Both the position numbers and the translations under genes were made by a program. Below the pieces are notes generated by a model. That model was not told the DNA's origin. It ran no database searches and worked only from the letters and a program-made list of their open reading frames with translations. This document shows positions 8,346 to 56,975 of a stretch of 64,000 nt of DNA, piece after piece. This stretch comes from Astropecten irregularis (taxonomy: Eukaryota; Echinodermata; Asteroidea; Paxillosida; Astropectinidae), in contig OZ020244.1 in NCBI GenBank assembly GCA_963971285.1, positions 35,464,001 to 35,528,000 on the forward strand, written 5' to 3'. The number at the start of each line of letters is the position of its first letter. Within the stretch, counting starts at the first letter, position 1.

Positions 8346-8478
8346 TCACACAATTTCCTGCTGGCTTTCCGCCATGTCCTTTCCGATCATCGTAGCGGTA
8401 ATCGGATGCATGTCGTCTTTGTATTGCTTGAAAGTCGCCACAGCCTGGTTCCTAGCCACAGGAAACTTGAACAAGTCC
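8346..8478 (-). CDS. LTA4H: LTA4H exon 16 (C-terminus and stop)
   Basis: Encodes residues 577-620, including [16 protein letters not shown], aligned with the human C-terminus ASMHPVTAMLVGKDL. The tail is a few residues longer than in human. Confidence 0.95.
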
Positions 8479-11400
8479 CTGATATAGGACAAGAAAGCAC
8501 ACAAACAAATTGGGTTTACGGACGTTAGTATGGGCACAAAGAAGTGCATGTTAGGTTCATTTACGGTATTAGAAAAAAGTATAGCAATTGTTTTTAATCT
8601 GATTTCTGGGGAGGGGGGTACACCCCCCAAGTCATGTCATGGCTCGCTGCGGCAGTGGCGCACCCAGGGGGAGTGGGGGGGGACTCGGGGGACTTGAGCC
8701 CACCCCCACCAAGAGGGTCCCTGAAAAAAAAAAATGAAAAAAAAATGGGGGAGAGGGAAAGGGAGAGGAGGAGAGGGGGGGGGGGAGTCACAAAATGTTT
8801 GTTGGCCGTTTTTTGGGAGAAAAGTTTTCTTTGAGCAACCCCCCACCACCCCCCCAAGACAAAATCCTGGGTGCGCCGCGGCCTTACGTGCAGTTACAAA
8901 CATGATAGCAAATAAAAATGTAACAGCAGAATGAAGCACAAGAATTCCTATCCAAATGTAGTAACCTCAGTAGTGCAACAATGTTTGAAATTCCAAGCCC
9001 TGCATGCACAATGTACGATTTGATGATTAACATGTACACCCATGCCCCTCACACAGCCCTAAACTTAAGAGGCCAAATCATCAACAAAAAATAAAAAACA
9101 ATTCCACATTTTGAAACAATAGATAAAACTTTAACATTTTTAAACAATAGAAAAACTTCAACATTGTCCATTTTTCATTTATGATAATGATTAAAACATT
9201 ATATTGGACAACAGACCAATGGCCTGAGACTAAAACTGTGTATGACATTAAAAGAAATTGGGCTTCAAGCACATACTAAAAAACATTTCACGCGGACGGC
9301 CAGACGGACGGATGGACGGAAATCGGTATTACATAGACTCGCACTGCTTTGCAGCAGCTTGCCAACAAATTACCTTTAACCAGCTACAACAACCTGCCCT
9401 CACCTGAAAATGGGTCTGGTGAATTTCAGTCGTCCCCACTTGACAGCAAAGTCTAGCGCCCTCTGGATGATAGGTTCGTGTCCTGCCCGGATGCAGAGGC
9501 GGTACCAGCGGAATACGATCTCCGCATTGCCACTCTCGCCGAAGCCGTAAGACTTCTCCATGGCCTGGATGTGCTGAGAGCTCAACGGGGGCTGGAAAAG
9601 AAGCACGGCAGAGGAATAATGAGCGTAGGTCTCAGTAAGCTGAGGTGTGTAATGGTGCAGAGACTTAAGGCCACAAACTTAATGCCTTCTGACAAGCGGC
9701 ATATGTATCCTTTGGCAATTTGAGGCTCTATACATATAAATCCAGATATTCAGATTATCATTATTACCATGCCAATAATAGACACTTTATTGTTGTAGTC
9801 TCAAAGCTTGCAATTCATTAAAGGGAGCATATAGGATTTGCAAGGCCTCCAAAAATATCTACTGAGTTTGAGACAGAAAATGGACTCAACAGTTCGTAAA
9901 CAGTGCAAACAGTCACCATGGTTCATCAGATGCTGGGTTTTTCAAGGAAATCAAGATATAGTGTCTTTTCCCAAAGATCGTTCGTCCGAAACATAAAGGA
10001 CATCCTCACTAGTGAGTTGTTTTAGTTATCCCCTTTCACTCAAGGTATGAATATGGAGCTGGTAGAAACATAACATCAAAATATTTCCACCTGAAATGCT
10101 GTATTTATCCAGAAATTAGTAAAACGTAGACTGAAAACAATTTTGATCTCGGGGTAAGATAAAAACCATTCTTTAAGTTTTATGAGAAAAATTGAGTCAG
10201 GTTTACGCTATTTTCTCGTGACTCAGATGTCTGATTGAGCTCAAATTTTCACAGGTTTATCATTTCATGTTCCTGTTTGATCAGACAAAGTATGAGTGCT
10301 GTCCTGTCGCCTACTAAAATTATAACGCATTATCCCACCCTACCAAAGACGAACTGAGCTTGGAATGTTGAATGCTAAACCATTGATTCTTCTCAAAACC
10401 ACAGAGATTACATGGTGTTACCGCAAACCTAGCTTATTTAGTACTTCTACCACGCATAGCTTTACAGATAATATCATACTTTGGTTTTTGTCAAAGAAAT
10501 ACAGATTCATGGGCAAAAAAATCAAGGAAGATACAATAACAGTCATCTGTGAAAATTTCAGTCCCATACGGTGCCCACTTTTTGAAAAAACAGTGAAAAG
10601 CGGCCATAGAATTTCTGAAGTCTTTTCTCTATCATTTGTGATCTTTTAAAGATAAAAAAACTTGAGTCATTGATTTTCCTCTTTTCTGGATAAAAACAGC
10701 ATTTCAGGCAGAATAAAATTAACGGTATGTTTCTACCATCACCATCTTTATACCCTGTAAGTTAGGTAAATCTGTGAAGATTTCTGTTTCGGTTTAAGTA
10801 TGATTCTACCTTTCAGTCTTATTTGACTTTAAAGCGGTTGTGCCATTCGAGATCCCGCCACAAACTTAAATTCTTACCTGGAGTAGAAGCTGTGACATGA
10901 CTTCTATGACCTGTTTAGAGGTCAACAACTTCAAGTCCTCTTTGGTGAAGGCTGACAGGTCAGACGGTGATGCTTGGCACCAGCGATGGCAGAGCTCCGT
11001 GCAGCTATTGGTTAATGCTGTGTCATAGCTGGATGTGACAAACGACAAGGATTAAAGGTACAGTAGTATCATACTTCGGTAAGAATCCAAAACAGAAATA
11101 TTCACAGATTTATGTATAACTTACAGGGTATGCAGATGGTGGTGGTAGAAACATACCGTGAAAATGTTTCCACCTGAAATGGTATATTTATCCAGAAATT
11201 AGTAAAACAACGACCAAAAATCTTTTTGATCTTAAGAGGTTAAGAGGTTTGGTGGGAGGGGTTGTTGACTAGGAAAGGAGACTAACTCACTCTGGTTTGA
11301 CTGGTGGCATCCCAGGCTGGAAGAACCAGGCATCCCAGTCCACGACATCAAACACCGATTGCTGATAAAAAAAGAAGCAAAAAACAATCAAACAATTTGA

Positions 11401-14400
11401 AGATGAAAGTCACTGCAAGAACAAGACAATTTGCACAAAGCAAAATCAGCGAGCAACATTTGTGACTTAGGTGGTACTTTTTAAGTAATGTATGTTAACT
11501 GAAAAGCTAGGTTGGTAAAGTATTGTTCAGTGTTGGGGTCGCGTCCTCAAATCCGAGTACAGTAAGGTGACAAGGGCCCTTTTCCAAACCTCGGCTCCGG
11601 CTCAGGCTCCGGCTTCGGCACTGTCATCCATATGCTGAAAATATAGTTTCTGGCTTTTCATTGAAGCTGAAGCTCTGTCTTCTTGTCAAAATTAGAGTAT
11701 CTACTTCCAAGCCATAGCCAAAAGATGATATTTTGATACCCTTCATTTTATAATGGTTTCAAGAAATGGAGCTGGAGCCGGAGCCTGAGCCGGAGCCGAG
11801 GTTTGGAAAAGGGCCCAGACATCCCTGATTTCCGGGGACAGTCCCCGATTTGACAGTGCCGTCCCCGATGAAAAACTGTCCCCGAAAATGTCCCCGATTC
11901 AACGAAATGCCCCCGAAAATTTCAATTGTCCTATAAAACAAAAAACTGAACACAAATGCTGTGCTGAAGAAGATCCATTCTTCAGAGAAGTATGCGAAGA
12001 CAACCGCCTATTAAAGACATGTAAGTATGTAACCCACTCATGTCAACTGGACAAGATGTCCATAGATGCCACCATTTTGCATGTAGGCAGCATCTGGATT
12101 AAAAAAGAATTCAAGTTATACCCCTCCCCAGGACACGGATCACTGTCCCTGGATCATCTCAACAAAATATGGTCACTTTAGAGTAGAGAGTACTCCGAGT
12201 ACTTCAACAATTTTATGTCACATGGTGTTTAATACCACAAATCAATAAAAAATACCGTACTGAAAGAATCTGAACCATTCCATGATTCTGCAGCCAACAT
12301 GAGCTTAACAAAGTTTTGAAAAATTCTGTCCTTAAAGGTAATACATGTATCATACTTTAGTGTTTGTCAAAGAAATACAGATTCATAGGCAAAAATATCA
12401 AGGAAGATACAGTCACAGTCATCTGTGAAAATTTCAGTCCCATACGGTGCCCACTTGTTGAGAAAACAGTGAAAAACGGCCACAGTATTTCTCATTAAGT
12501 CTTTTCTCTTTTATTTTTGATCTTTAAAAGATCAAAAATCATTTTGGTCACTGGTTTGACTTTTTCCTGGATAAATACAGCATTTCAGGCAGAATAATTT
12601 TAACAGTGTGTTTCTACCATCACTACCTTTATACCTTGTAAGTTATAGGTAATTCTTTGAAGATTTCTGTTTCGGTATAAGAGACCAAAACAGAAATGTT
12701 CACAGATTTATGTATAACTTACAGGGTATGGAGATGGTGGTGGTAGAAACATACTGTTAAAATGTTTCCGCCTGAAATGGTGTATTTATTCAGAAATTAG
12801 TAAAACAATGATCGAAAATAAAAGAGAATACACTTAAGAATTACTGTGGCCGTTTTTCGCTGTTTTCTCAAAAAGTGGGCAACGCATGGGACTAAAATTT
12901 TCACAGATGACTTTTACTGTATCTTCCTTGATATTTTTGCCCATGAATCTGTATTTCTTTGACAAAAACCAAAGTATGATACTACCTTTAATTCAACGAC
13001 CCAAAAGAAGAATATGTCACCTTGTCATGGAAGTAGTCAAAGAGATAGTCCTTCCATTCCTGTGTGGTAATGCTCTTATACTTGAACTTGTCAATGTAGG
13101 ACCTCAAGAAATTTTCAAATTCATCTGCAGTGAGAATAAAAGGCGAGGTTAAATCAGAATAATTAGCAAACTGTTTTATTAGTTCGTTTTGATTCTGTTT
13201 TTAAAGGTAGTATCATACTTTGGTTTTTATCAAAGAAATGCAGATTCATAAATATCAAGACAGATACAGTTATAGTCATCTGTGAAATTTTCAGTCCCAT
13301 ACAATGCCCACTTTTTGAGAAAACAGTGAAAACAACCACAGTATTTCTTAAGTCTTTTCTCTTTTATTTTTGATCTTTTAAAAGATTAAAAAGATTTTCG
13401 GTTGTTGTTTGACTAATTTCTGAATAAATACACCATTTTAGGCGGAAAACATTTTAACGGTATGTTTCTACCACCACCATCTTCATACCCTGTAAGTTAT
13501 ACGTAAATCTGTGAACATTTCTGTTTTGGTTTCTTACCAAAGTATGATACAACCTTTAATCAATGCAATATATAAACTGCTGCAAAGTGCTCATCAACCC
13601 CAAAAATTGACCTGAAATATATCAACATGCTTGGAGTTCAGGAGGGCCTGAAGCGTTTCGATCCTAGCAGGATCTTTCTCAGAGGCTAAATGACAAGAGG
13701 ACAAGAACATACAAGTAAAAGATACACATAATTTGTTTGTTTTGTTCCTCTATAGAGGGTGTCCCCCAAAAAAACCGCAACACTTGTGCCGATTAACTGT
13801 TTATCATTTCAAGATTCAGATATGTCATACAAGTATTAAAGTCTTGGCTATCACCATGTTGAATTTGAGAAAAATTTGACTAAAATTGAGTGAAAAAAAA
13901 AAAAAACTCAAATACCCGACCTCAAAACCCGATTTTCATCTTTCGTTCATACACATTATGTGTGTATTGACCACTATGCGTGTTATCCTTGTAAATTTGT
14001 TTTTAAGGAGTACTCTTTCAATTGGTCATATTTTCGCCAATTTCAGCCCCAGTATGCTTAAATTCTACATGGTAATAGCCTCTATAGACCCTTTGTGTTA
14101 GCTAATAATTTTACTTCTTTCTGAAAACTGCCCGGATTTGATTGCCTGTAAAGTGCCTCGTGTCAAAAAGCCATAAAACTTAACAGACTGCCGGCACGAG
14201 GAAAGATTCCAAATCTTGGTCGTCATTAATGGTAAGAAGACCTTGAACATGACGTCACAACTCGGGGTTCGTTCACTTTCGTTTTGTTTTGCTTAGCATA
14301 GTGCGTTCTCATCAATGAGCAGGGGCCAATTTCATAGAGCTGCTTAGCACAAAAATTTGCTAAGCACGACATTTCTGTCTTAATAAAAACTGGATTAACA

Positions 14401-17400
14401 ACCAAATTTCCATGTGTTGTGTATCACATTGTTCTCTGGCTGTTTTTCGCTGACCATGAATATCAAAATCAAATTTTCAGACGTGGTTTGTTTTTATTGG
14501 GCAAGCCATTTTTTGTGCTAAGCAATTTTTTTGTGCTAAGCGGCTCTATGAAATTGACCCCTGCTCATTGCGGAAGGAATTAAAGTAGTACCTTGATTGC
14601 CAACCAGAGTCTCAAGGTAAAACAGTAAGGTGGACCCCTTCTCATAAGGCACTGAGGAGAATGCATCATCAGGATCAACGTCCTTTAGATCGGGCAGGAG
14701 GTGGGTGTATGGGTGGGTTAGTCCATACCTGTCAACCTGATATTGAAACAAGGGTAAGTGGTGATTAACGAAAAGGAATCTTCCTCAGGGTCTAGATGCT
14801 AGGGATTGTGAGGGGGGTAAGTTTTTGGAATTACCCCATAGCTTTTAGTTATTATTATGGTGTTTTATTTAATCATCATTGCAGCCAAACAGGCTGAATT
14901 GCACATGATTTCACATTGATACAAAATACAGTAAAATACAATAAAATACAAAGAAATAAAGATAAAATACTTTTAGAGGTAAACTACAGGATTGGTAACA
15001 TACCCAAACAGAAATATTCATAGATATTAACGTATAACTTTCGGAATATGAAGATGGTGGTCTGGTGCTGGTAGAAACATACGGTTAAAATATTTTCGCC
15101 TGAAATGGTGTATTAATCCAGAAATTAGTAAAACAACGACTGAAAAGAGTTTTCATCTCGGGTAAGATCAAAACCATTCTCAAACCATGGATCAGACAAA
15201 GTGTGAGTGCTGTTCTGTGACCTTTACCAATCATGTGTCATACCTTTAAAGGTAGTATCATAGATTGGTTTTTGTCAAAGAAATACAGATTCATGGGCAG
15301 CAATATCAAGGACGATACAGTAATAATCATCTGTGAAAATCTGAGAAAACAGTGAAAAATTGCCACAGTATTTCTTAAGTCTTTTCTCTTTTATGTTTGA
15401 TCTTTTAAAAGATCATAAAGATTTTCGGTCGTTGTTTTACCATTTTACCATTTCAGGCGGAAACATTTTAACGGTAGGTTTCTACCACCACCATCTCCAT
15501 ACCCTGTAAGTTATATGTAAATCTGTTAACATTTCTGTTTTGGTGTCTTACCAAAGTATGATACTACCTTTAACCTGTTTACCAAACCAAAACATGACTG
15601 CAATACACATTATCCCAAACTTGGTACAAATGACTCTCTAAGATTCTGAAGCTGACACGGATGCCTAAAATCAAACCCATTGGCCTCGTTTTATTTGTTT
15701 GTTTGTTTGTTTGTTTTTCCTGAGAAATATCAAAATCAAACGGTATGTACAGTAATTGTTGCCATAATAGGGGTTGGGTGGGAGGGGCGGAGCTCTCCTG
15801 AAAAGAGAAGGAGGAGGGAACATCAAAGTGCATTAAATTGGAGTCAAACGTTTCACTTACCGAGTTTTTCAAATCTTTCCAACCGCCTGGCAAAAAAAAA
15901 GACAAGAGAAAAAAGAACGATAATCCATCAGGAAGTTTGAGTTTATTGCAAAGTGTCGCGCATAATGGGAGTTAAGATGGATGACATGAAGACAAGAATG
16001 GATAAGCGTGTTGGAAACATTGTTTAGGATGGGCACCACCCATTGAACACACGATGCACACGATGCCTTCAGGAAGAAGGATGAGATCGATAGGTGCTAA
16101 AACGAACCGATTCAGAGATAGTTTTGTACCATCGGCTGTGCAGGTTTTTTAACAATGGGGACTTTTAAGGTCTTAAGATTAAGGGTTGTTTTTACAGACA
16201 GTTGTAATGTTTTATTGTTTTATCATGTGTTTTAAAATTGTTCTTGTATTGTCATTGTTTGTATCTTACTTGTAAATATTTTATATTGAATATGTTTTTT
16301 TATGCGAGTCCAACTTTACAAATTCCTCTGTATTTTTTATGTAATCATTGGCTGAAATGAATAAATCTTGAAAGTGACATTCCCATCAAACGTGGCATAG
16401 GCAAGGCAGATTTTCAGTTTTTAATTCCCAAATTCCTTTTGTGGAGGGAAAACTGAAATGCCTTTCGAAGAAAATAGCCGCTGACAATCAAGAAAGCTCC
16501 TAGATATTTCAATCCTTAAAATGCAGGACTTTTCTAGGTCCCTTTTGCAGATGTCACGAGGATTTATAAGTTTCTCAAGAAGGTCATAATTTGTGATCTA
16601 ATACTTGGACAGTTAATTATAATAATAATAATAATAACGGGCATTTATAAAGCGCCTTTCCAAGAAGATCAAAGCGCTGTACATTATTATTATCCCTGGT
16701 CATCGGGCCATAATTTACATTCCTGAAACCATCTCAACTCCCTGGGGAGCATACAGCCCCATACTGGCAACCATAGGGCGCACAGAGGCTAATCAAACCA
16801 CAAAGCCATCTCTACCCTCACAGGTACCCACTTACACCTGGGTGAAGAGGAACAATATGTGATAAAGCGTTTTACCCAAGGACGCAAGTAACATTAACCC
16901 ATGGCTGGATTCGAACCCACAATCTGTAGATTGACCACAAGACTTTGGGTTCAACAGGCCAGACCAGTAGGCAACAGCATCCCACAACAGTTGGACATAG
17001 ACGATGATACAGTGAGGGGATTCAGCTAAAAAGTTTCAAGCCATGAAAACTGCCTCGATAAAAGGGGGAATCTTGGGATTACCTATGGCCTCAAAGTGCC
17101 TCTGCTTCTCGCCGTGCATCCGGCCGGCGATTTTTCTCTCCGCAAAGACGGTGAACCCTTCGTTGAGCCAGAAATGTTGCCAGCTGCAGTTGGTGACCAA
17201 GTTGCCCGTCCAGCTGTGACTGATCTCATGGGCAACGACCTGAATGTTAAAGTGATGGAAAGGATCAAACCAATCTGAAGATACCATGCATGACTTCGTT
17301 ATTGGCTACGGCTAATTGGCATATACAGCATTGGTAATTTTTTTTTTTTAAGTCCACAGATTTATGTATAACTTACAAAGACTTGCATGGTATAAAGACG

Positions 17401-20400
17401 GTAATGGAAGAAACATAATGTAAACAATTTTATGCCTGTAAATGCTGTATTTAATCACCAGTGGTGTCTGGTAAAAACCAGACACCAAAACATTTTTGAT
17501 CTTGGAAAGATAAAAAAAATAATAGCTATTCCCCATTTCTACTGTTTGTTTTTATTCCATAACAAATCAAATTATGAACAGCCTGCAGCTGCTCTGTCAC
17601 CTTTATCAATGCTGTACACTCCTTTGAAAGCTATAGCTATTTACAGATTTTACACTAGGTTTGTCCTTCACCAGAGTGGCATCAGCACTGCATGCTCAGT
17701 GCTTTTTTAGTGCACATGAAAGAATCATGCGCTGGCTCGGGTGGGATTCGAACACACGACTTCCCGCTTACTAGTGCAGATGTCATACCACTAAACCACC
17801 AAGCTACCCAGGGTCAGCAGGTTAAATCAATAATTCTATCGCTCCAATAAAAAAATATTAATAGCAATGTCTTAAAGGTAGTATCATACTTAGTTTTTTG
17901 TCGAAGAAATACAGATTCATGGGCAAAAATACCAAGGACGATACAGTAAAAGTCATCTGTGAAAATTTTTGTCCCGTACGGTGCCCACTTTTGGAAAAAA
18001 CAGTGAAAAACTGCCACAGTATTTCTGAAGTCTGTTCTCTTTTATTTTTGATCTTTTAAAAGATCAAAAAAGATTTTCGGTCGTTGTTTTACTAATTTCT
18101 GGATAAATACACCATTTCAGGCGGAACAAATTTAACGGTATGTTTCTACCACCACCATCTTCATACCCTGTAAGTTATACGTAAATCTGTGAACATTTCT
18201 GTTTTGGTCTCTTACCAAAGTATGATACTACCTTTAATCGAATGTAACATCGCAGCAATTTGTATCATTCTATCACCTCAGCAAAAAAATCTTAATAACA
18301 ACGGCTTAAAGCTTCAAACGAACAAACGACTGAAGCCTCTCCCATAGAAAGGTGTACATTTCCAGGCTATGGCTAGTCATTCTGACACAGTCAAAGCCAC
18401 TCACAGATCAATTCAAATTTGATTGAAGTCCGTTGTCTAGCGGAATGAAAAAAACAATGGATAGATTTGCCTGCAAGAGCTATAATCTGACTCGGGACAG
18501 GAAATCACACGGCAATCTTCCCCCTTGAGAAATTAATATCAAGGCAGGAAATTCACCACAGGTTATTATTAAAGAAGATTGATTTTTTGATAAGTGCATA
18601 TCGATATTAATTGCTAGGGAAAGTGTATTAAGGTCGTAATGCAATTTGGTGATAAATTGATAATTTAATTCATCTGTGGGTTGAATCGCGGAGCTTAATC
18701 AAATTCGAGGTCTTTTATGCTGTTCGTTCATATCCACTGTACTGTGTGACACGGACTACGCTAGCCGAGCCAAGGTGGTCAGCCTCTAAGATCACGACAC
18801 TTTACTTTCAAGGTACAGTACAGGATTGGTAACATACCCAAACAGAAATGTTCACAGATTCATGTATAACTTTTAGGGTATGAAGATGGTGCTGGTAGAA
18901 ACATACCGTTAAAATATTTTCGCCTGAAATTGTGTATTTTTAGCCAGACATTATTAAAGGTACAATACATGATTGGTAACTCATACTTTGTTTGATCAAA
19001 CATGTACATCCGTGAAATAATAAACCTGTGAAAATTTGAGTTCAATCGGACATCTCAGTCACGAGAAAATAGCGAAAACCCGACTCGATTTTTCTTATAA
19101 AACATGAAGAATAGTTTACTTTTTTTTTTTCCAAAAATCGTTCGGACGAACGATCTTTGGAAAAGACACTAAATCTTGATTTCATTGAAAAACCCAGCAT
19201 CTGATGAGCCAAGATTTCCCATGGTGACTGTTTGCACTGTTTACGAACTGTTCAGTCCATTTTCTGTCTCAAAATGAATAATTTTTTTGGAGGCCTTGCA
19301 AATCCTATATGCTCCCTTTAAAACAAAGTTCAAAAACAGTTTTGATCTCGGGGTAAGATCAAAACATTTATGTTTTATAAGAAAAAATTGGGTCAGGTTT
19401 TTGCTATTTCTTGTGACTCAGATGTCCGATTGAGCTCAAATTTTCACAGGTTTATTATTTTCATTTACATGCTGGATCAGACAAAGTGTGAGTGCTGTTC
19501 TGTGACCTTTACCACTCATGTATATCTTTTCTTGCGTCTGTCTGTCTTATCAGACACATGACGGTACAATTCACGGGACAGCAGCTGATCTTCAGCATGA
19601 TGAATTTGCGGATTTTAAAACGTTTGTTACATGGAAAGTCTTGATACTTACAGTTGCAAGTGAGCGGTCCCCTGCCTGTTGAATAAAAGCAACAAATAAA
19701 ATGAATTGAGAACACCGAAGCAAGAAAATTAATCCTCAAATTAGAACTACTTGAAATATCCTGTCCTTTCAAACTGATTTCTGTCACAATAATGAATTAC
19801 CATGATTACCAGCAAAATCAAGATCAGGGGTGGATTGCAATAAGCGGTCTTAAAGCTGTCTATATGCCTTAGTGAGTCTTAAATGGCTTAGACCTAGTTG
19901 TTCTATAAGTTAGACCATTGCAATGAAGCAGTCTTACTGCTTTAGCCAGTCTTAAAAGAGTTAGCCTGCTTGGAGGAGGCTTAACACTGTCTTAATATTT
20001 GGAATTTCACTAACTTGATTGCATTTTGGAAAAGTTTTTGTTGCTAAAATGGCAATTTTTACTTAGTTGTTGAAGATTTAAACAGAAGAGCCTTGGGTCA
20101 ACAGAGGGGTTCCTGAGGGACAGACTAAATCCTGTGGTGAATATGATAACAAAAATTTGACTGGAACAGCTCTTGAAACCTTGTCTTCAGAAATAGAAGT
20201 GGAAGGGGTTACACTGAGGGCAGGCGCGGTTCTAAAACCAACATTTTTTGGGGGTAGAAGACCCAATATTTTGGTTTCTTCAAACACTCGCTTCTGCTTT
20301 GTCTTATTAGGGGTTGGAAAACATGCACATAAAGCCCACACAACGCGTTTTTTTATGTCATTGGCGCTTAATAACTGAAAATAAAAATTTTAAAAAGTAA

Positions 20401-23400
20401 CATTTTGTTAACCCACCCCCCCCCCCCGTAGAACCACGGTTGTTTGAGGGACTAGAGAAGCCATATCCTCTTTGAGTGATCCCCCATGTACCGTTTCCAG
20501 GTTGCAGCATTGCTGCGTGTATCGTTAAAACGATCCTTGGGGTGCGGCGGTGTGTGAGTGGTTTCATTGCTTCTGACTGTCAAACGAACAAAGATAGTTG
20601 ACTATTATGGTCACCACCAACGTACGGCTGGATGGCTCAGTTGGTAGAGCGCCTGTACATACGGTATTCAGGAGGTAGCCGGTTCGAATCCCGCGCCAGT
20701 CAATTTTTCTTTGTTCACTTTTCAATGACTTCAAATTTCTCAGTCAGTTTCCCTTGTGGTTATTTTATTAACATAGACTTCTAATGGATTTGTTACCTAC
20801 CAGCAGTGTTGCAGTGACGAAGGTGAGGCAGGGATTTTCCATTCCTCCGTAGGGGAAGGACGGCGGAAGAATCAGGAGATCATACTGCCCCCAGATGTAT
20901 GGACCAAGCAAACCCTCGGCTATCTGAAGCATCTGTTCTGTCTGGTGAGAGATTGGAAATCAGTTCAAGAAATCACTGGGAGAAATGGGGAGGAAACAGT
21001 GAGGGCAAGTGCGTTAGGCACTTTTCAATAAAAGATGATTGGCGGTGTACAAAATAATATACTGACACCACCGCAGTTTCTTGTTTTATTCAAAAGAGGG
21101 CGCCATTCAAAACCGTGTGCTCGGATTACTGTATAATGCATTCATTTTATACAAGACACTCAAAGTTTGGCAAGTCACAGGTAATTAGACCGACGACTTG
21201 ATCATGAAACAATGGCAAACACACAGGGGTTAATTCATGGAGCGGCTGAGCAAACAATTGCAACACATTTGCTTAGCACCAACAAGATTCCATTTGATAT
21301 TCATGGTCAGGGAACACCAGCCAAAGACCAATCACAAGTAATACACATTTAACACATGGAAATTTGGTTGCAAATCCTACTTTTATTATGACAGAGATTT
21401 CATGGTTAGCAAATTTTTGTGCTAAGCATGCATCATGCAGAGCCTGTCAGCAGATTTGCTTCGACATCAAGCAAGCAGAGGGCCTTGCTCAAGTGACAAT
21501 ATCATTTAACCCTAACCCACTGCACCTACTGTAAATGTATCACATAAGTCAAGAGCTGCTTACCACACATTACCACCGTCTCCACAGGCCCGGGACTGGA
21601 TCATAAACCACACAATGCCACGAAAACCACACTGTGGTTGACTGTGATATGCCGGTGGGTTACGGTTAATTCTAAAGGAAATTTTAATATTAACTTTCAC
21701 AGACAAAAATGCAAATAAATAAATACCTCTGCAAACTCATATGCTCCTTCGTCAACATGCTCCTTCTCCGACCAGACTCTGGAACGTGGACCGATTATCC
21801 TGATGGCAAATAAACAAATTAACAAATAAACAAATGACAAAATGAAGCAATGAAGCAATGAAGCAATGAAGAAACGTAGAAATGAAGAAACGAAGAAACA
21901 AAGAAACAAAGAAACGACAAAACGACGAAACAACGAAACAACGAAATGAAGAAATGAAGAAATGAAGAAATGAAGAAATTAAGAAATGAAGAAATGAAGA
22001 AATGAAGAAACGAAGAAACAAAGAAACGAAGAAACGAAGAAACGAAGAAATGACAAAATGACGAAATGAAGAAATGAAGAAATGAAGAAATGAAGAAATG
22101 AAGGAATGACGAAATGACGAAATGAAGAAATGAAGAAATGAAGAAATGAAGAAATGAAGAAATGAAGAAATGAAGAAATGAAGAAATGAAGAAATGAAGA
22201 AATGATGAAATGAAGAAATGAAGAAATGAAGAAATGAAGAAATGAAGAAATGAAGAAATGAAGAAATGATGAAATGAAGAAATGAAGAAATGATGAAATG
22301 ATGAAATGAAGAAATGAAGAAATGAAGAAATGATGAAATGAAGAAATGAAGAAATGAAGAAATGAAGAAATGAAGAAATGATGAAATGATGAAATTGAAG
22401 AAATGAAGAAATGAAGAAATGAAGAAATGAAGAAATGAAGAAATGAAGGAATGACGAAATGACGAAATGAAGAAATGAAGAAATGAAGAAATGAAGAAAT
22501 GAAGAAATGAAGAAATGAAGAAATGACGAAATGAAGAAACAAAGAAATGAAGAAATGAAGAAATGAAGAAATGAAGGAATGACGAAATGACGAAATGAAG
22601 GAATGACGAAATGACGAAATGATGAAATGAAGAAATGAAGAAATGAAGAAATGAAGAAATGAAGAAATGAAGAAATGAAGAAATGAAGAAATGAAGAAAT
22701 GAAGAAATGAAGAAATGAAGAAATGAAGGAATGAAGAAATGAAGAAATGAAGAAATGAAGGAACGAAGAAACGAAGAAACAAAGAAATGACGAAATGACG
22801 AAATGAAGAAACGAAGAAATGAAGAAATGACGAAATGAAGAAACGAAGATAAGAAGAAACAAAAACGAAGAAACAAAGAAACAAAAAAACAAAGAAACAA
22901 ACAAACGAAGAAATGAAGAAATGAAGAAGTGAACAAATGAACAAATGAAAAAAACCAACAAATAAACAAATACTTTTTTCAAAGGATAACTTTATCTGGG
23001 AATCCTCGAACATGACAACAAACAAACAAATATATACAGAAGTGTGAAGATAAGAGGGAAATGTGGTAACCGAAATTTGTTGCATACAGATATGACATGT
23101 TGCATAGAGATATGACAAAAGCAAACAAACTTTACAAACAAGGTAAGACCAGATAAAGACGTTGTAAACAAATAAACAAATAAACAAACAAACAAACAAA
23201 CAAAACACCCCCACAGACAAACAGTAAAAACAAAACACAAATAGAATCATTTCAGTCCATACACTGTCTCATACCGAAGTTAATCAAATCTTAAAGGTAA
23301 TATCATACTTATTATCATACATATTTTAATCAAAGAAATACAGATTTATGGGCCCACAAATATCAAGACAGACACAGTAACAGTCATCTGTGAAAATTTC

Positions 23401-24913: not shown

Positions 24914-27900
24914 CACACGTAAAACCTGACGTGCGGTATTAAAGAGGATGTTCAACACTCAACAAACCTCACTTTATTTGTTAGAACTATAATCATTAAA
25001 TTACTTGACACGAGAAAAAAAAAATTATCTTACACTGAACACAGAAAGAGAGTCTTTTTGATGATTTTTCTATCAACATGCTCAACGCGCAAGCTACCCC
25101 AAAATTGAAACTGTCTGAATTTCGTCAATGGGGGCAGCAGATATTTAATGAAAAGGCTCTGTTATGTGACGTAATGAGCCTTTTCATTTAATAAAAAGGC
25201 TCCGTAATGTCACGTCACAAAATCACACAGATTTGTCTGCTGCCTCCATTGACGAAATTCAGACAGTTTCACTTTTGGGGTAGCTTGCAGGTCGAGCATA
25301 TTGAGAGAAAAAATCATCAAAAAGACTCTTTCTGTGTTCAGTGTGAGATAAATATTTTTTTTTTCTCATGTCAAGTAATTTTAATGATTATATAGTTCTA
25401 ACAAATAAAGCGAGGTTTGTTGAGTGTTGAACATCCTCTTTAAAGGTACATGTAGTATCATACTTTGGTTTTTGTCACAGAAATACAGATTCGTGGGCAA
25501 AAATATCAAGGAAGATACAGTACAAGTAATCTGTGAAAATTTCAGTGCCATACGTTGCCCACTTTTTGAGAAAACAGTGCAAAATGGCCACAGTATTTCT
25601 TAAGTATTTCGTCTTTTATATTTGATCTTGTTTTACTAATTTCTGGATAAATACACCATTTCAGGCGGAAAGATTTTAACAGCATGTTTCTACCAGCACC
25701 ATCTTCATAGCCTGAAAGTTATCCGTAAATCTGTGAATATTTCTGTTTTGGTCTCTTACCAAAGTATGATACTACCTAGTAGACGTACACGTCAGGCATT
25801 AAATGAGATTCGGTTCAATGAGCCCAGTTATAATACTGAGTTCTATGGGGCCCGTGCGTTTGCTGTTGCTGTGCCACGCCTGTGGAACAAGCTCCCTATC
25901 TCGATTCGCATGAAGCCAACAATGGAATCTTTTAAGTCTTCATTAAAAACATATTTATTTCAACGGTATTTTATCTAAATTCAGTTCTATTCATGTTTTG
26001 TGGAAGTGTATTTTTAATTTATTTGTAACTTAAAATTTCATATTGCCTTTTTAGTTTTGGTAATCTTCTTTGTAACCTTTTAAGCCTTTTAATTGTTTTT
26101 AACATTTTTAGAATTTTTGTACGTAACTAAATTTCTCTCAATTTTTTAATGTAATTTTATCCATTTGTAAAGAGCTTTGAGATTGTGTTTACAATGTGAA
26201 GCGCTATTTAAGAATGTATTTATTATTATTATTATTATTAAAGCATACCTGCTCTCTAGAAGTCCGACCACAATAGCAATGAGATAGCTTGGGATGGGAA
26301 CTGTCTGCTGGAAGAGATAGGTCTTCTTAGAGGCATCAGTAGCACAGGGTTCGTCTCCTACCCTCTCAGCACTCATCAGAGCAACCAGGTCCCTTGGTAC
26401 TGTCACCTAGAGTGTCAATGACCATTCCAAACACTATCTTTACTAAAAGGGTGCACAAAAAGAAACTTCCGTTGATTTTGCTTTAAATGCTTTAAGTAAG
26501 GAGGGCCTGACGCATTTTGATCCTAACAGGATCTTTCTCAAAGGCAAACTGACGGAAGGACAAGAACATAGAAGTGAATGGAAACACAAATGTATGGATG
26601 AGGGAGTCAGGACAATGGGAGAGGGGATTGGTCACACACAGAGGGGTCAGGTAGGCAAGATCAAAGTTGCCAGACTACAAAGGGGTTGGGAAGAATGGGG
26701 CTGGGGGATAGGGATTAACAAAGAAGGTCATTTGACCCAGGGTCAACTTTCATTGAAAGTTTTTTTTTTTCCATTCAAAATTTGTATCAAGCAGGAAAAA
26801 ACAGCCACGGTCGTGACAGTAATCAAAATCAGGACGTTGAATAACCAACAACCCCTAGATAAAGTCAGCGCAAACAAACACAGACAAATTAATTCTTAAA
26901 GGCAACAAATATTATGTAAATATATGGAAATTGGATGGGCGATCCTGTTTTTATGTTTTTTTCTTAATGCTTGGAGTTAGGAGGGCAGGATGCATTTTGA
27001 TCCTAACAGAATCTCAATCCTGCTACTGGATTTTTTTTCATCAACATGATCAAGGATAACTCTTCATGCTTTTTAATTAAGTAAATGCCTAGACGGCTTA
27101 ACGAGCTCAACAAAGTTGGCCCCCCTGTACATGTATATGTACGTGTAATCTCGCAAAGCCAATTAGGGTGAAATTATGCCTATTGGTTTGATAAGCACCT
27201 GCGACACAATAAGGCACGTGTGTACACCATAGACGTACTTATTGGAGAGATTTTGTGCCGCCCATAAGGCCGAAAAAAAAAAAATTGTTGTGTTGCCCTC
27301 AAGTGGAAAAATTTAAATTTTGGGTCGGTCGGTCGTTTTTTTTAATTTTTTTTTTTGCCGACTTTCAAACATTGAAAATTAAATACTGTGTCGTTCATAT
27401 ACATGGTCACCAGGGCTTATAAATCAACGGTCTTGGGCCGTTTTGAGGAGACATGCTTTTTTACTGCTAAATCTTACATTTTCTGTCAAAAATTGTGAGT
27501 TAAAAAGAAAAATAAATAAATAAAAAATCCCGACCAAAAGTTTTGGCATTTTACGGTTGGTCGCTGAGGGCAACACAACAATTTTTGTTTTTTCGGCCTA
27601 AAGAACACGCACGAAGGGTGGGGGGGGGGGGGGGTGGGGGTTGTTTACGGATGCGTATGCCATGCGTACAGGGGTCTGGGGGGTCAGGCCAATGAGTGCG
27701 TCCTGTACCCAAACGTAAAATTTGCATAATCATATCACGCGAGAAGAGAGAAAAAAGTGGGGAAAAAAGCACCGTTTTTTTTTTCCCTTCTTCAACAATA
27801 AGAGTACACTCTTTGAAAGGCATTCCAGTCAAAGTGTTCTTGTCGGCCCTCAAATTCAAAATGACTGCGCCCAGGATGGCTTCAAAGCATCTACGCACGG

Positions 27901-30900
27901 AGAATGAGGAGCTAGCACTCTATCAATTTTATCAATAAAAAATAGTAAAATATGTGTGTATAAAAAAAATGGTTATGTACACTTAATAAGTCATTCATTT
28001 CAGAATTTGAAAGTGGGGTCATTCCATGTCAGACCAACACACTTTTTTACCTTAGGTCTTCTGATTTTTATAAAAATTAGTATGCAAGTAGGTATCAATG
28101 AGTAATGAATGCATGCCAATTTTTAGTGGAATCCCTCCACCCATGTGGCCAGTACGCATGCGCCAAAAATACGGACATTTTCATGTTCTGACACTACCTT
28201 GCACAGGATTAAACTATAACTCGGTCATATTTCAACAAAAATATGCAAGTGTGGTATCAAAATAGCTAGGGTATAGCTAGGGGGGTCCAAAATTGTGTCT
28301 AGCCCCCCCCCCCCCACCCCCCCACCCCAAAAAAAATACAAGTGGAATTTTTTTTTGAAAACACTGGATTTTTTCAGTTATTAAGCGCCAATTACATAAA
28401 AAACGCGTTGTGTGGGCTATACTTTGCATGTTTTTTGACCCCTTATAAGACATAGCAGAAGCGAGTATTAGAAGAACCCAAAATATTGGGTCTTCTAGCC
28501 CCCCCCAAAAATTTATTGCTCTTCTAGCCCCCCAAAAATGTTGGCCCTAGAACCGCGCATGGTCATGTGATCAGATAGGTGACACCATGAAGCACCTTGC
28601 TACCAAAGCAAGTCTTCACAGGCCCTATGAGGATCACATATTGAAAAGAAAATTTCAAGGAATCATTTCAGTGTGTTGAATTCCATCAGTTTCAGTTTTC
28701 ATGGCACCGAACAATTGAATGCATTTTTACTATCATGGTCTTCATGGAGGTCAACATACATCAACCATTAATATACTTGTACGCAGGTTGTCGTCCCATT
28801 ATTGTTTATACTGAAGATCTAACAAAAATGGTTCTGGGCCAACATCTTGTTCATTGCTTTATTAGACCATTCCATTTCTTTCTAAGACAAAATAATCAAT
28901 AATGTTTCTTTCTTCATTTTCCAATTACAATATAAGCAAGGAATTTTAGTATTTCAACTTATTATTTCCCTATGGTTACAAAGCTTATAAACCAAATCCA
29001 ACATTCTCCACTGGAATTTTATGGATCTTGCTCGTTGGCGGCTGATGTTATTTGTTAGTTGTCATTAGTCAGTTAGTATGATCCATTGCATGATTTGTAT
29101 CTGAAGTTATTCTGAACCCTGCTGGAACAAAAACACAACATGGAGAAACATATTCCATTGGAGTCAAATACTTAAGATCCTTTAAATTGAAGTCCCAACA
29201 CCATGAACACAGAACAAGGTGAAAATGTGGGTGTTTTATACATTGCAGATTAAAGGAGAATGAGATACGATGGGAAATTTAAGATTACATAAGGGGAAAT
29301 CACAATATATTGCCTACAGAACAAAGGTGTGTTTTATACAGTCTCTGAGGTACTGCAGGATAAAGGACAATGAGACATCAATTGGGAAAATTTAAATTAC
29401 ATTAAAGGGAACTGCACAGAGAAAGTTGTGAGGCCTATTGTTATTAAAGGGGACAAAACTACGCATGCATTGATCAGAAAAAATTCCATAAAATCATCAA
29501 TTTTCAAGTGCCCAGCGAAATTTCAATGGAATCTTGTAGAGAAAGACCTGTTCTATCAGGCAAACGTTGTTTCGTGAAATTTCAGAATGATACTTTTTTT
29601 TAAATCTAGGTCAAAGGTCAAAGTTCGTGTGTCAAAGGTCATGGGTATCCACTTTTACTTTTTCTCTATTTTTAGTGTAGCATCACTTAGAGCATCTAAT
29701 TCCGGTCATTTTGATACCACACTTGCATATTTTTGTAGAAATATGACCGAGTTATAGTTTAATCCAGTGCAAAGGTAGTGTCAGAACATGTATTTTTGGC
29801 GCATGCGTACTGGCCACATGGGTGGAGGGATTCCACTAAAAATTGGCATGCATTCATTACTCATTGATACCTACTTGCATACTAATTTTTATAAAAATCG
29901 GAAGACCTAAGGTAAAAAAGTGTGTTGGTCTGACATGGAATGACCCAGTGACGTCCCAATAACGGTACCGGCCTGGATTACTGTGACATTTTAATGATGC
30001 TAAAGCAAGGTACCACGAGAAGTGAAAAACCTAATGTGGAATGAGTATGCGTACAGGGGGGAGGAGGGGGTTGGGACCATTGCGTACGCCATGGTGTAAA
30101 TAGGGGGGGGGGAGGTAAAAAAAAGTCGGCAATTCGTGCTTACATACTTTATGGACGGCCCCTTACACTATGTACAATACTGTGTCAGTCATGGGTGATA
30201 ATAAGGATGGTACAAAATAGAAAGACCCACCTTAGCGCTGTAGGGTGCCTTGACTCCTGGTGTGTCTTGGCATGGAACCATGCTGCGTGCATGTATGGCC
30301 TGCAAAAGGTACCAGTCCACAAAATAAATATATGAGAAATAAGACTTTAAAAGAGCTTAAAGGTAATATCATACTTTGGATTTTGTCAAAGAAATACAAA
30401 TTCATGGGCACAAATATCATGAAAGATACAGTCACAGTCATCTGTGAAAATTTCAGTCCCATACGGTGCCCACTTTTTGAGAAAATCCTGAAAAACGGCC
30501 ACAGTATTTCTGAAGTCTTTTCTCTTTTATTTTTTATCTTTCAAAATATCAAAAAGATTTTTGGTCGTTGTTTTACTCATTTCTGGATAAATACACCATT
30601 TCAGGCTGAACCATTTTAACGGTAGGTTTCTACCAGCACCATCTTCATACACTGAACGTTATAGGTAAATCTGTGAACATTTCTGTTTTGGTCTCTTACC
30701 AAAGTATGATACTACCTTCAATGCATGGTGGAAGTACTAAATAAGGTATTTGTGTGGCTATTTAAGCCATCGGTTCTTCTCATGGTGACACTGCACCGCA
30801 GAGCTACCTTATAGTCAAGGAGAAAAGTTTTCTGAAAACCCTCTTATTACGGAGTTAGCTCAACCCCCACTACATCTATGGTTGACTTCATATTTATGGA

Positions 30901-33900: not shown

Positions 33901-36900
33901 TTTCGAAGCGATTTATTCCAATCGGAAAATAGTTTCAGTTATTTCTCAACGAATATGGCATTTCAGACAAAAACATTTCATGGGATGTTTTCTCCTATCA
34001 TCACCATAATACTGTGTAAGTTTTATGTGAATCTGTGATTATGAAGTGTATTTTGTCTTACCAATTCTGTACCCTCCCTTTAAGCTTCATTTTGATGCCC
34101 TACTTCAGGGGTGGGCAACCTTCATGAATCAATGGGCCAGAAACGAGGAATGGAAAATTTGGCAGGCCGCACTATGGTCAACAATGCACTTTCAATTTCA
34201 AACATTCAGTAACGAGGATTTTCTTAGAGGGCAACCCCACTAAGGAACACAACCTGACAACTACTGAGAGGTGTTGGTTTCAGGTATACAATGACCACAT
34301 GTGCATTTAGGCACATCACAAGCGCCAGCAATATCACTCCGCACTTGCGCTAAAAATAGCACATCGGATCTCGGGCAAATTACATTGCAACCATGCAAAC
34401 GTGTGGTATGTCCGCGTGCATGCATGGTGTTCACTACGTGCGTGAGTCAATGTTTGTCTGACATTCGGGGACTCGTGTGACGTCATTAGTGCGGAGCGCT
34501 ATTAATAGGGAACTCGGAGCTAGCTCGTTCTTTGTGTTTATACCGTACCGAGCTGTGTGAAGCACATACCAATTTTTTTTCTTACTTGATGCGTCTCGCG
34601 GGCCGCATAGAAATCAACGGCCTGCAGGCCGTAGGCTGCCCACCCCTACCCTACTTGATACCAAGGACTCAACACTGTTCAATACACACGCTATTGTTTG
34701 TCAAAAGGTACAAAACCAAAAGTTGCACTTTTAGGTATACAGGTTGAACTTACCATGCGCTATATTGCATAGGGCGATATTGTTTGGGTCTACAATGGGT
34801 TACACACAGCTACACGCTGTATACCTAAAAGTGCAACTTTTGGTTTTGTACCTTTTGACAAACAATGCTGTGTCCATTGAACAGTGTTGAGTCAATTTGG
34901 CATCAAGTAGGGCATCAAAATGCAGCTTAAGATGTGCTCTAAACATCTACTCAGACTACTCATATCACCCCAAACCGATTAGATTTAGAGGGGTCGGGCG
35001 TCAAAATCAACAGAAGTTACTTTTTGTGCGCCCTTAACTTGTACATGTTTTCAGCAGCTTAAATTTACATAGACACTACAGTACAGTCATCGTGTCGATT
35101 TCTTTTCATTATTGGTGGGGATGATTGGCGATTTGGTGCCCTATGCGAGGGAACGAAACGACCAAGCGGTGAGGAGGGTGGTCCCGCACCAGGGACTTAA
35201 AAAAAAAAAACAGAGCATTTTAGAGCATTTAAAATTTATAAATGCTCAAAAATGCGACTTTTCAACTCTGTCTTTGTTAAAAACAATATTGCAATTTTTT
35301 TTTCTCATTATTTTGTTGGTACTTCAGAAATTTTGTCGAATGTAAATGACATTTAACCTCCAAATATTTTTTTTTGGGGGTGGGGGTTGGGCGGTGATAA
35401 TACACGCCATCCCTCCACCTCAAATATTTGGGGGGGGGGATTTATATCCCCCCATCCCCCCCGGGATCGACACCCATGAGTACAGTATAATGGGAGACTT
35501 TGGAGAATCGGTCTTCAAGTCAACAGCACACGTGCACGCACAACAGCGCAGGTACAAAACAACGCGCCCATGACGCTCACAATTGCGTGCGCGTGCGCTG
35601 CTGACTTGAAGACCAATTCTCCAAAGTCTCCCATTATGTTTGGGAAACATGGCTGAAGATTCTAGGGAATAAACCATTTGCGAGATAAATCTGAATAGTA
35701 TCTGGTACACAGGCTTCTTTCCTTGCATAGAAACACCTAAGTTTGAATTTCCCAGACTAAAGACTCTGTTGCTATATCACATGATTCGGGGCAAGCTTTT
35801 GCTTTAATAGTTACATAACAGACGTCTTGCACCAATGCACTGTTCATAATGGATAAGAATGGCACAAAGGAACCAGTCCATTCCAGAGATGGGTATCGCT
35901 ATGTAAAAGCTTGCCCCGAATCACGTGATATAGCAACAGTCTTTAGTCTGGGAAATTCAAATTGGGATGTTTATATGCAATGAAAGAAGTCGGCGTACCA
36001 GATACTATTCAGTTTTAACTCGCAAATGGCTTATTACCGGTAGTCATTTTTCCATGGTCATACAATGTACGATGTACGTGTACAGGTATCCCTTATGCCT
36101 CAATGTTCTAAATAATATCCTTAACACTAGCATTTGTCTGAGCCTTATAGTATTCATTACCTGGCACTGGCTGAAGAGATAAGGATGTTTCTTGCCTGCT
36201 GTTTGTGATGGCTGCAACCACTGCAGGGCAGAAGCACTGGATGACGTCTCATAGTTTATCCTGATGCACAGCTCTGCTCCCCTGACAAAAGACAGCACCT
36301 TGCTTTGACATTGTACCCTCTCTTTGGTCTTAACGGGAGACTTTGGAGAACCGGTCTTCTAGTCAACAGCTGCACACGCAGGCGCAAAACAATGCACGCA
36401 TGCTCACAACTGCGTGCGCATGCGCTGTTGACTTGAAGACCGGTTCTCCAAAGTCTCCCATTCTCAGATGTAGCCCCTTTTTTGCCACCAGGGGCCAATT
36501 TCAAAGAGCTGCTTAACCCTAACCTGCATTTTCCACACACGACGAGAGCTGCTTACCACACACTACCACAGTCTCCACAGTGGGACTGGATCATAAACCA
36601 TGCATTCCCATGAAAACCATAGCATAGGTGGCAAGTGCGTTAGGCACTCGCCTCTCACCAATGTGGCCCGGGTTCAATCCCGGCTTGGGTCATATGTGAG
36701 TAGAGTTGTGCGTTGGTTCTCTCCTATGCTACGAGGGTTTTTCTCCAGATGATCAGGTTTTCCTCCCTCCACAAAAATCAAACACTTTCGATCTCAGGCT
36801 GTACTCCGTGATCATATATGGGTTGATGTGGCTGGCAGCCAAGGGCGCCCATGAAAGCCTGCTACTCGATCACGTTGAAGTCGCATCCTTCGCAATTCAG

Positions 36901-39900
36901 CACCCCAGCTGCCAGTAAGGATGATTAGCCTCCCAAATTATTATAATTATTATAATTATTAAGTAACCACACTGTGGTGTATTGTGGTACTCAGGATACC
37001 ACACTTACGGGTGCACCCAAGTAAATAGTCCCAAAATCCGTCCGCCTAGCTCATTAATAAAAGTTACAGCACTCAATATATTTTAAATAAGAGAGTTCTG
37101 ATAGCTATAAAAAATGAGGGATTGAAGAAATATGGCACTGGACCTACTGCCTGGACTCTGGGCTTCCATTTGTGACCATTTGTGGTGCAATTGGGCGAGA
37201 AAGTGGGTCTATTTCAGCCGCTTTGCAGAGGGATGTTTTTTTGAAAATGGCTTCTTTGACTGAAGTGATCCATACCTTGTTTTAGGGGTGGTCAGTTGAG
37301 AATGAGTATATCTCAAAAATGCAATGGTCAACCGGTTCACCCACCATAAAATGAAAAGAAAATGAAAGGTGACATGTTCATCTGTGCAACTTGAACAGCT
37401 GTGAGAGTTATGTATATTTTTAAATGATTTTTGAAATAATTATACGGATTTATCACTGTTGTCTATGGGAGTTTATTTACTTGGGTGCAACCTTACCACA
37501 AGAGAAACCATTTGTGGTAAACTGTGGTATGGAGGTGGGATATACTGGATTAAGCACCAACATTTGCTTTTTAAAAGTACCATCTGACACCATTATTAAA
37601 TCAAATCAGTATGCCAGCCTATACTCCTTAAAATGTTCTGCTCAGCAAACAATAGCAGAATACAAGCCAAAAGCACGAACATTTGCTTGGTAATCCTGTT
37701 GGATCAAGGCCGAATTTTCATGCATTTTATTTGCAAAGTTTGTGCTTAACGGTAATATTATACTTTGGTTTTTGTCAAAGAAATACAGATTCATGGGCAA
37801 AAATATCAAGACAGATACAGTAACAGTTATCTGTGAAAATGTCAGTCCCATACGGTGCCCACTTTTTGAGAAAATAGTGAAAAACAGCCACAGTATTTCT
37901 TAAGTCTTTTCTCTTTTATTTTTGATCTTTTAAAAGATGATACGGCTTTGTTTAATTAATATATTCGTGAAATAACCACAAGGGAAACTGACTGAGTTTT
38001 TTAAGTCATTGAAAAGTGAACAAAGAAAAAAGAAAGCCGTATCCTCTTTGAGTGATCCCCCATGTACCGTTCCCAGGTTGCAGCATTGTTGCGTGTATCA
38101 TTGAAACGATCCCTGGGGTGTGACGGTGTGTGCGTGGTTTTATGGCTTCGGACTGCCAAACGAACAAAGATAGTTGACTACTGGGGTCACCACCAACATA
38201 GGGCTGGATGGCTCAGTTGGTAGAGCGCCTGTACGGTATTCAAGAGGTCGTCGGTTCGAATCCCGCTCCAGTCAATTTTTCTTTGTTCACTTTTCAATGA
38301 CTTAAAATAACTCAGTCAGTTTCCCTAGTTGGTTATTTCACGAAGTATGAATCTTATGAGATATATATGTAATTGAAGAGGGGGAACTAAGTTTTTTAGA
38401 TGTATCGTTTATTAATCAAGATTGTGTGATTAATCATAATAACAAGTTTACTTAATCTCCGCATCCTTTCATGGGAAAAATTGGTCAGGTGTGAAAAAGG
38501 ATTTGAAAAAACAATGACTATTCAATCCATATTTAAAGGCAGATATCTATGTCATCCCTTGCTCATTTTTCTTGACTGAGGTATCATTTGAAAGGCCAGG
38601 AAATGTCGTTTCTAAAAATGTGATTGATTCTTTAAAATAAAAATATCTAATATCTAATATATCTTAAATATCAAAATAAATTCTCTAGTTGACAGCTTTG
38701 TAATTGGTATTATGTTATCCGGCCTCACATTTAATTTTTTGCCTCCCTCTTGCTCTTTTTCCTTGGTATACAATCCTGCAGAACTCAAACTGCTATTTGT
38801 TTTTTCTAATTACGTGCCCGAGAATATTTTTAGTTTAAATATGTTTCAGGCCTTGATTTTTAATATTTAATATTCATAAATAAAAATATCGTTGGGCAAG
38901 TTACTTTTTGATAGCCTTGCTTCATATTGTCTTTACTCACTCATGCGTGAAGTATGGATCACAAGAATGGTATCAATTGAAAGCTGAGGAAATAAGCTTT
39001 TCAGATATATGTATCATTTATTATTCAAAAGTGAAATTTAAAATAGGATTAAACACTGACAAACCTAGGTTAGTAGGTTTCGGTTTTTTTCTGGGACACC
39101 CTGTACAGGCAGTGTGTATCTATTTTTAATATCCTTACTTGTTTTGCACACTGGAAGGCAGTTTGATGTGCAGCGCTGTCCCCAATGCCTTGTGAGGCTC
39201 AGCAAGATGGAAGTCTAGTTTCTCACCGCTGTTTTCATCACACACACTGGAGATCTGCAGGTTGCTTGTGTCCAGTATCTGATTTAAAATTGAAAAAAGA
39301 AAAACTGTCAACCCTAGCTCCCATTTACATTACATGTATACAACAATTTAACCACAGATGAATATTAAAGGTTCACTGTAATAAAAACACATCTGAAGTT
39401 AAATACATCTGTATTGTTATAAAACTCAACCTGCCTATCATTGTTTGTGCTAAAAAATATTGTATAATAGAAAAAGGAGGTATTCTAGACCCATAATTTA
39501 GCACCCCACTTTTCGCGACGAAAAACCTTGCTTACGTCACATGCAAAATGCCACACAGTATACTGTGGTGCGAGCTATACTAGTTCTGTAGGTGACATCA
39601 CACGCTATTGTTGCGTGGATCGGTTCCAAGGGGGACTTTTTTTGGGGACGGGGCAAACATGTACTGATTTTGTAACTTTTTGGTCAAAATGAAGCACTAG
39701 AAATATAAATTTATATAGTCATGCATTATGTATTAAGAAATTAGAGCACTTTCACCCCTATTCCAAATTTGATTACAGTAAACCTTTAACCCAGATGAAT
39801 ATTTTTACAGGTGTGGTCAGATTGGTATCCTGAATTTTAACTTAAAGGTATAATACATGATTGGTAATGGTCACTGAACAGCCCTCATACTTTGTATGAT

Positions 39901-48073: not shown

Positions 48074-48187
48074 TCTTGCTGTGTCTCGTGCTATCACACA
48101 GATTCAAGCTCTGGTTATCGTGTTGCGCTTATTTTCTGGATAGGCCTAATTGTCATTCAAAGCACACAGCTAGCATCATTCCATGGG

Positions 48188-51140: not shown

Positions 51141-51254
51141 TCTTGCTATTTTATCTAGTGAATTGCAGTGGAGTTTGCAGAGATTGAAGCTGTGGTTTAC
51201 GTGTTCTGCTTATTTTCTGGATGATACTTTTCATTAGGCCCGGAATGCAGTGGC

Positions 51255-56866: not shown

Positions 56867-56975
56867 CTTCTCATCAGCTGAGTGGTATCTGTGAAGAGAG
56901 CAGTGTATTTCATTTTGGTAATTTGATGCATGACATATACCGAACAACTGGGAATACCGGTAAATAATATGTTAA

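What the first reader, a model, noticed from the sequence alone, without database searches (positions are those of the whole stretch)
14659..14661. LTA4H with Phe at the human Tyr378 position
The spliced protein reads [14 protein letters not shown] where human reads [14 protein letters not shown], with Asp375, Tyr383, Arg563, Lys565 and zinc ligands kept. Published mutagenesis of the human enzyme found that Tyr378 is the residue modified during suicide inactivation by LTA4, and that Phe there protects the enzyme and changes the product mix towards a double-bond isomer of LTB4. This animal may naturally have an inactivation-resistant enzyme, perhaps with altered product.
Basis: partly seen in the sequence, partly recalled or inferred. 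Interest (0 to 1): 0.72.

Follow-up and report, generated by a model that had tools for sequence, protein, structure and literature searches.

The report
Leukotriene enzyme with ordinary family residue
This animal's leukotriene A4 hydrolase really has phenylalanine where the human enzyme has tyrosine, but related enzymes from a frog, a yeast and a marine bacterium have phenylalanine there too, so the human tyrosine looks like the odd one and the finding is mostly ordinary.

Summary
A complete 16-exon leukotriene A4 hydrolase (LTA4H) gene lies on the minus strand (41257-8346). It encodes 620 aa, 56% identical to human over 606 columns, and passes NCBIfam's LTA4H cut-off. Its codon at 14661-14659 is TTC, Phe383, opposite human Tyr378; the catalytic and carboxylate-binding residues checked are kept.

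The reading of it as a special natural variant is not supported. Of the four LTA4H-type enzymes with solved structures seen, human has Tyr, while 4GAA (Xenopus by recall), yeast and Colwellia have Phe; yeast and Colwellia share the window's DPDDAFS. Of 22 distinct bacterial relatives none has Tyr (V7, L7, M5, I2, F1). The LTA4H profile slightly prefers Phe to Tyr (157.4 v 156.7 bits). Phe is therefore most simply ancestral and human Tyr derived.

The human covalent-inactivation site is absent by sequence. Whether this enzyme resists inactivation, makes another LTB4 isomer, or meets LTA4 at all is untested; the genome has lipoxygenase exons.

The parts
14659..14661 (-). TTC codon, Phe383, aligned with human Tyr378
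   Evidence: coordinates and codon; alignment to human
41096..41257 (-). LTA4H exon 1 with ATG
39139..39278 (-). LTA4H exon 2
36161..36281 (-). LTA4H exon 3
30231..30299 (-). LTA4H exon 4
26249..26406 (-). LTA4H exon 5
21727..21799 (-). LTA4H exon 6
20801..20941 (-). LTA4H exon 7, with GGMEN
19652..19675 (-). LTA4H exon 8 (24 bases)
17083..17239 (-). LTA4H exon 9, zinc motif HEISH...E
15861..15886 (-). LTA4H exon 10 (26 bases)
14592..14736 (-). LTA4H exon 11, Asp380 / Phe383 / Tyr388 (human 375 / 378 / 383)
13021..13124 (-). LTA4H exon 12
11291..11361 (-). LTA4H exon 13
10878..11028 (-). LTA4H exon 14
9404..9591 (-). LTA4H exon 15, Arg568 / Lys570 (human 563 / 565)
8346..8478 (-). LTA4H exon 16 with stop

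Best explanation
This is an ordinary animal LTA4H whose Phe383 is the old family state; Tyr378 of the human enzyme is the derived one. Shown here: an intact gene, catalytic residues kept, and Phe in three of the four solved LTA4H-type enzymes seen. Inferred: it works as a zinc aminopeptidase (Glu296-type base, Tyr383-type proton donor, Arg/Lys carboxylate clamp), for which the Tyr378 hydroxyl is not needed. If it is given LTA4 it can probably open the epoxide using the kept Asp375 and Tyr383 equivalents, with looser control of the triene geometry, and it cannot form the covalent adduct that human Tyr378 forms.
For: Intact 16-exon gene; NCBIfam TIGR02411 810 bits against a cut-off of 761.7; Pfam M1 N-terminal, M1 and Leuk-A4-hydro_C domains; active-site residues kept. 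Column at human 378: Phe in 4GAA, yeast 2XQ0/2XPY and Colwellia 3CIA, Tyr in human; 0 Tyr in 22 distinct bacterial relatives, all with Tyr at the 383 column (for the 378 column; one search lists the 383 column as Y in 20 of 20, and the two read IPYEKG and IAYDKG). Profile scores: TIGR02411 F 157.4, Y 156.7, W 155.3, L 154.3, V 154.0, A 153.3; Pfam M1 F 52.1, Y 51.4. A passage of PMC10343166 says the Tyr378 equivalent is Phe in PSA and factor F3.
Against: Only one animal column besides human and 4GAA was seen (the window); no fish, other amniote or other invertebrate LTA4H could be fetched. No tree was built. The Phe-over-Tyr preference of the profiles is only 0.7 bit, and the bacterial PepN profile TIGR02414 prefers Tyr (21.1 v 19.8). 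Most bacterial relatives have V, L, M or I, not Phe (21 of 22). Tyr does occur in more distant M1 enzymes: APN (PMC10343166 passage) and, by weak alignments, two other M1 loci of this genome (L008, L012).
Confidence: 0.8

Rival explanations
1. Tyr was ancestral in animals, and Phe arose separately in this lineage, in the 4GAA lineage and in yeast, perhaps because it protects the enzyme from its own substrate.
For: Human Y378F mutant papers exist (titles seen). Tyr occurs in other M1 enzymes (passage; L008, L012). The genome has lipoxygenase exons, so a leukotriene-like substrate is possible.
Against: It needs three or more changes where a single Phe-to-Tyr change on the human line explains human, 4GAA, window, yeast and Colwellia. 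None of 22 bacterial relatives has Tyr.
Confidence: 0.1
2. Phe is ancestral but functionally silent here, because the enzyme is only an aminopeptidase in this animal and never meets LTA4.
For: A passage of PMC2483973 states that the C. [quoted passage not shown] Pocket neighbours differ from human.
Against: Asp375, Tyr383, Arg563 and Lys565 equivalents are all kept, and lipoxygenase exons are present, a stretch of which is nearest to the allene oxide synthase-lipoxygenase protein and next to 5-lipoxygenase among solved chains. This is compatible with the best explanation's ancestry part.
Confidence: 0.4
3. The Phe is an assembly or paralogue artefact.
For: None found; no reads were available to exclude a base error directly.
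Against: Intact splice sites and frame; DPDDAFS is identical in yeast and Colwellia; no second genomic copy of exon 11 was listed among the 19 TIGR02411 matches in the genome.
Confidence: 0.02

Closest known systems
Human leukotriene A4 hydrolase (PDB 1HS6 and others)
   Same: 56% identity over 606 columns; zinc motif, GGMEN, Asp375, Tyr383, Arg563 and Lys565 kept
   Different: Phe for Tyr378; also F362Y, K364H, V366L, V367P, T370K, I372V, V376D
4GAA, 'MGC78867 protein' (Xenopus laevis LTA4H by recall)
   Same: Phe at the column ([14 protein letters not shown]) and Pro at the 367 column, as in the window
   Different: Val for Pro374 and Ala at 376, where the window has Pro and Asp
Yeast leukotriene A4 hydrolase (PDB 2XQ0, 2XPY)
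   Same: DPDDAFS identical to the window; Tyr383 kept
   Different: More distant overall: 446 bits against 780 for the best human chain
Colwellia cold-active aminopeptidase (PDB 3CIA)
   Same: DPDDAFS identical to the window
   Different: A bacterial enzyme, 377 bits to the window protein, and VPYVKG rather than VPYEKG

Membership tests
Leukotriene A4 hydrolase | Curated family score (NCBIfam TIGR02411 equivalog cut-off 761.7 bits) | tested here: met
   810 bits over residues 8-612
Leukotriene A4 hydrolase | Zinc site HEXXH...E and GXMEN | tested here: met
   His300, Glu301, His304, Glu323; GGMEN at 273-277
Leukotriene A4 hydrolase | LTA4H C-terminal domain PF09127 | tested here: met
   114 bits, gathering score 27
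Leukotriene A4 hydrolase | Asp375, Tyr383, Arg563 and Lys565 for epoxide hydrolysis and carboxylate binding | tested here: met
Leukotriene A4 hydrolase | Conversion of LTA4 to LTB4 | not testable with these tools
   needs recombinant enzyme
Human-like, suicide-inactivated LTA4H | Tyr at position 378 | tested here: not met
   Phe383, codon TTC; also not met in the 4GAA, yeast and Colwellia chains, so it does not define the LTA4H family as a whole

The most novel reading that the evidence does not exclude
Covalent suicide inactivation through Tyr378, together with strict 6-cis product geometry, is a late gain on the line to mammals. The animal in this window, like the 4GAA and yeast enzymes, keeps the older Phe form, which stays active during turnover and gives mixed LTB4 isomers. 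Swapping this one residue both ways between the two enzymes would then test why mammals acquired a self-limiting enzyme.
Probability: 0.3. Interest if true: 0.45.

Novelty: new member of a known kind. Interest (0 to 1): 0.17.

Why it matters
It corrects the direction of the comparison. Human Tyr378 is the residue in need of an evolutionary explanation, not the Phe of this animal. If suicide inactivation was gained on the line to mammals, the limit on LTB4 output in human inflammation would be a datable, testable innovation. As a single gene observation, the finding itself adds one more Phe-bearing LTA4H.

Tried and rejected
An extra coding exon in intron 11 (13612-13685, reading [25 protein letters not shown]) has the same phases as exon 12. 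It was rejected because 51 open AG...GT segments of like phase and 60-140 nt lie in the 33-kb gene region, a count that includes real exons if they fit the pattern.

A pseudogene or paralogue was rejected on the intact frame and splice sites and on the 19 genome matches, 9 of them in the window and 10 outside. Three of the 10 outside were looked at: L012 looks like aminopeptidase O (label recalled; DPHPTY at the column), L008 like a bacterial PepN on small contig C139, L014 like another M1 enzyme, with no match at the column.

A search for the animal's own aminopeptidase B did not complete. A viral scan gave no relative. Paper searches found no held paper on this column in echinoderms or other invertebrates; the original Y378 mutant papers and the yeast and C. 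elegans papers are not held (the ids were typed from recall). PMC2241622, searched for Tyr378, held none of those terms.

Full report
What is there. The window holds a complete LTA4H gene on the minus strand. tblastn with human LTA4H (typed from recall) found most of its exons; the remaining ones were read from the sequence and the whole was joined in a script. The result is 16 coding exons from 41257 to 8346, 15 introns all GT...AG, and an open frame of 620 aa. BLASTP against human gives 338/606 identities. NCBIfam TIGR02411 scores 810 bits, above its cut-off of 761.7, and Pfam finds the M1 N-terminal, M1 and LTA4H C-terminal domains. Phe383 is encoded by TTC at 14661-14659. In the pairwise alignment it sits opposite human Tyr378, with Asp375, Tyr383, Arg563, Lys565, Glu296, Glu271, Gln136, Tyr267 and the three zinc ligands kept. 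Seven nearby positions in 362-376 also differ from human.

Is Phe unusual? The PDB tool gave the same column in other LTA4H-type enzymes. Human chains read [14 protein letters not shown]. 4GAA, named MGC78867 protein and Xenopus by recall, reads [14 protein letters not shown]. Yeast 2XQ0 and 2XPY read DPDDAFSTVPYEKG. Colwellia 3CIA reads DPDDAFSGVPYVKG. So three of the four enzymes have Phe. The window's DPDDAFS is letter for letter that of yeast and Colwellia.

Bacterial relatives. Six loci came from the genome collection. Three of their genomes were then given handles, and phylum searches covered 118, 148 and 198 genomes, with overlap between the first two. One search examined 23 full-length loci, 3 of them repeats of others, leaving 20 distinct: V7, L6, M4, I2, F1, none Tyr, with the Tyr383 column Tyr in all 20. 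Two plasmid-borne relatives added L and M, making V7, L7, M5, I2, F1 in 22. In L005 a gap lies beside the column, so its V is less certain. The sample is narrow: four of the 22 (L001-L004) are Rufibacter, and 11 more come from the phylum search around L003. The further M1 relatives of 100-150 bits were not read at the column.

Family profiles. Single-residue variants of a 115-aa window segment were scored. For TIGR02411: F 157.4, Y 156.7, W 155.3, L 154.3, V 154.0, A 153.3; the control change Tyr383 to Phe drops it to 154.8; Asp376 to Val gives 155.7; Pro367 to Val raises it to 159.9. For Pfam M1: F 52.1, Y 51.4, L 47.2, V 46.7, control 48.5. Phe is thus at least as typical of the family as Tyr, though by a small margin. 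The bacterial PepN profile TIGR02414 goes the other way (Y 21.1, F 19.8).

Interpretation. On human, 4GAA, window, yeast and Colwellia, one Phe-to-Tyr change on the human line is the simplest history. This is parsimony on five sequences; no tree was built, and no fish, other amniote or other invertebrate sequence was available. A passage of PMC10343166 says the Tyr378 equivalent is Tyr in APN but Phe in PSA and factor F3, so both states occur across M1 enzymes.

Function. Passages of PMC8954237 describe Tyr267 and Tyr378 as wrapping the triene of LTA4 and as favouring the 6-cis product; its reference list shows the titles of the two 1996 Mueller papers on Tyr378 mutants. What those papers measured is recalled, not read: Phe or Gln at 378 protects human LTA4H from inactivation and yields a 6-trans-8-cis isomer of LTB4. 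I also recall, without a source in hand, that a Xenopus enzyme forms the same isomer and that the yeast residue (Phe424 in one numbering) has been studied; these are leads only. A passage of PMC2483973 says that the C. [quoted passage not shown] For this animal, resistance to inactivation is a fair prediction, but V376D, V367P and other changes mean it is not simply the human Y378F mutant.

Does the animal have a route to LTA4? Its 475.7-Mb genome gave ten lipoxygenase matches, five of them over the central segment, at five places on two contigs; three of these five have stops inside the matched or flanking stretch as listed, so not all need be working genes. Two joined exon stretches of one of them (L017) are nearest to the allene oxide synthase-lipoxygenase protein (1.9e-23) and next to 5-lipoxygenase (2.5e-20) among solved chains. 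Positional specificity was not determined.

Verdict. Observation confirmed; interpretation as a remarkable natural variant not supported; prediction of inactivation resistance plausible and untested. Interest is low as stated, moderate for the reversed question of when and why the human line gained Tyr378. The species was not identified.

Noticed in passing
window 47111-48103 (-) and 50181-51209 (-): Two intronless rhodopsin-type GPCR frames, 87.9% identical over 321 aa, both 7tm_1. The second is nearest to the histamine H2 receptor among solved chains (4.2e-28).
   Followed up: partly
window 54665-56971 (-): A 768-codon stop-to-stop frame with a DNA-repair metallo-beta-lactamase domain (DRMBL), like SNM1/DCLRE1 nucleases by recall.
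   Followed up: partly
window 17731-17806 (-), 20626-20702 (+), 38202-38274 (+): Three tRNA-like elements, all inside LTA4H introns; they may be tRNA-derived repeats rather than genes.
   Followed up: no
window 21752-23268 (-): Long repetitive frames (FLHFFISS...) open in all three minus-strand frames, just upstream of exon 6; a simple repeat in intron 5.
   Followed up: no
window 13612-13685 (-): A 74-base open AG...GT segment in intron 11 with the phases of exon 12; not above chance.
   Followed up: yes
L008 (G000:C139:51476-52270): A PepN-like frame of 1241 aa without introns on a small contig, 36% GC; possibly a bacterial contig in the assembly.
   Followed up: partly
L017 and L018 (G000:C19, about 13.68 and 13.27 Mb): Two nearly identical lipoxygenase exon stretches about 0.4 Mb apart: a recent duplication or an assembly duplicate.
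   Followed up: no
window introns, e.g. 12340-12700 and 17870-18240: Many copies of one interspersed repeat (GGTAGTATCATACTTTGG...) with inverted ends are visible in the LTA4H introns.
   Followed up: no
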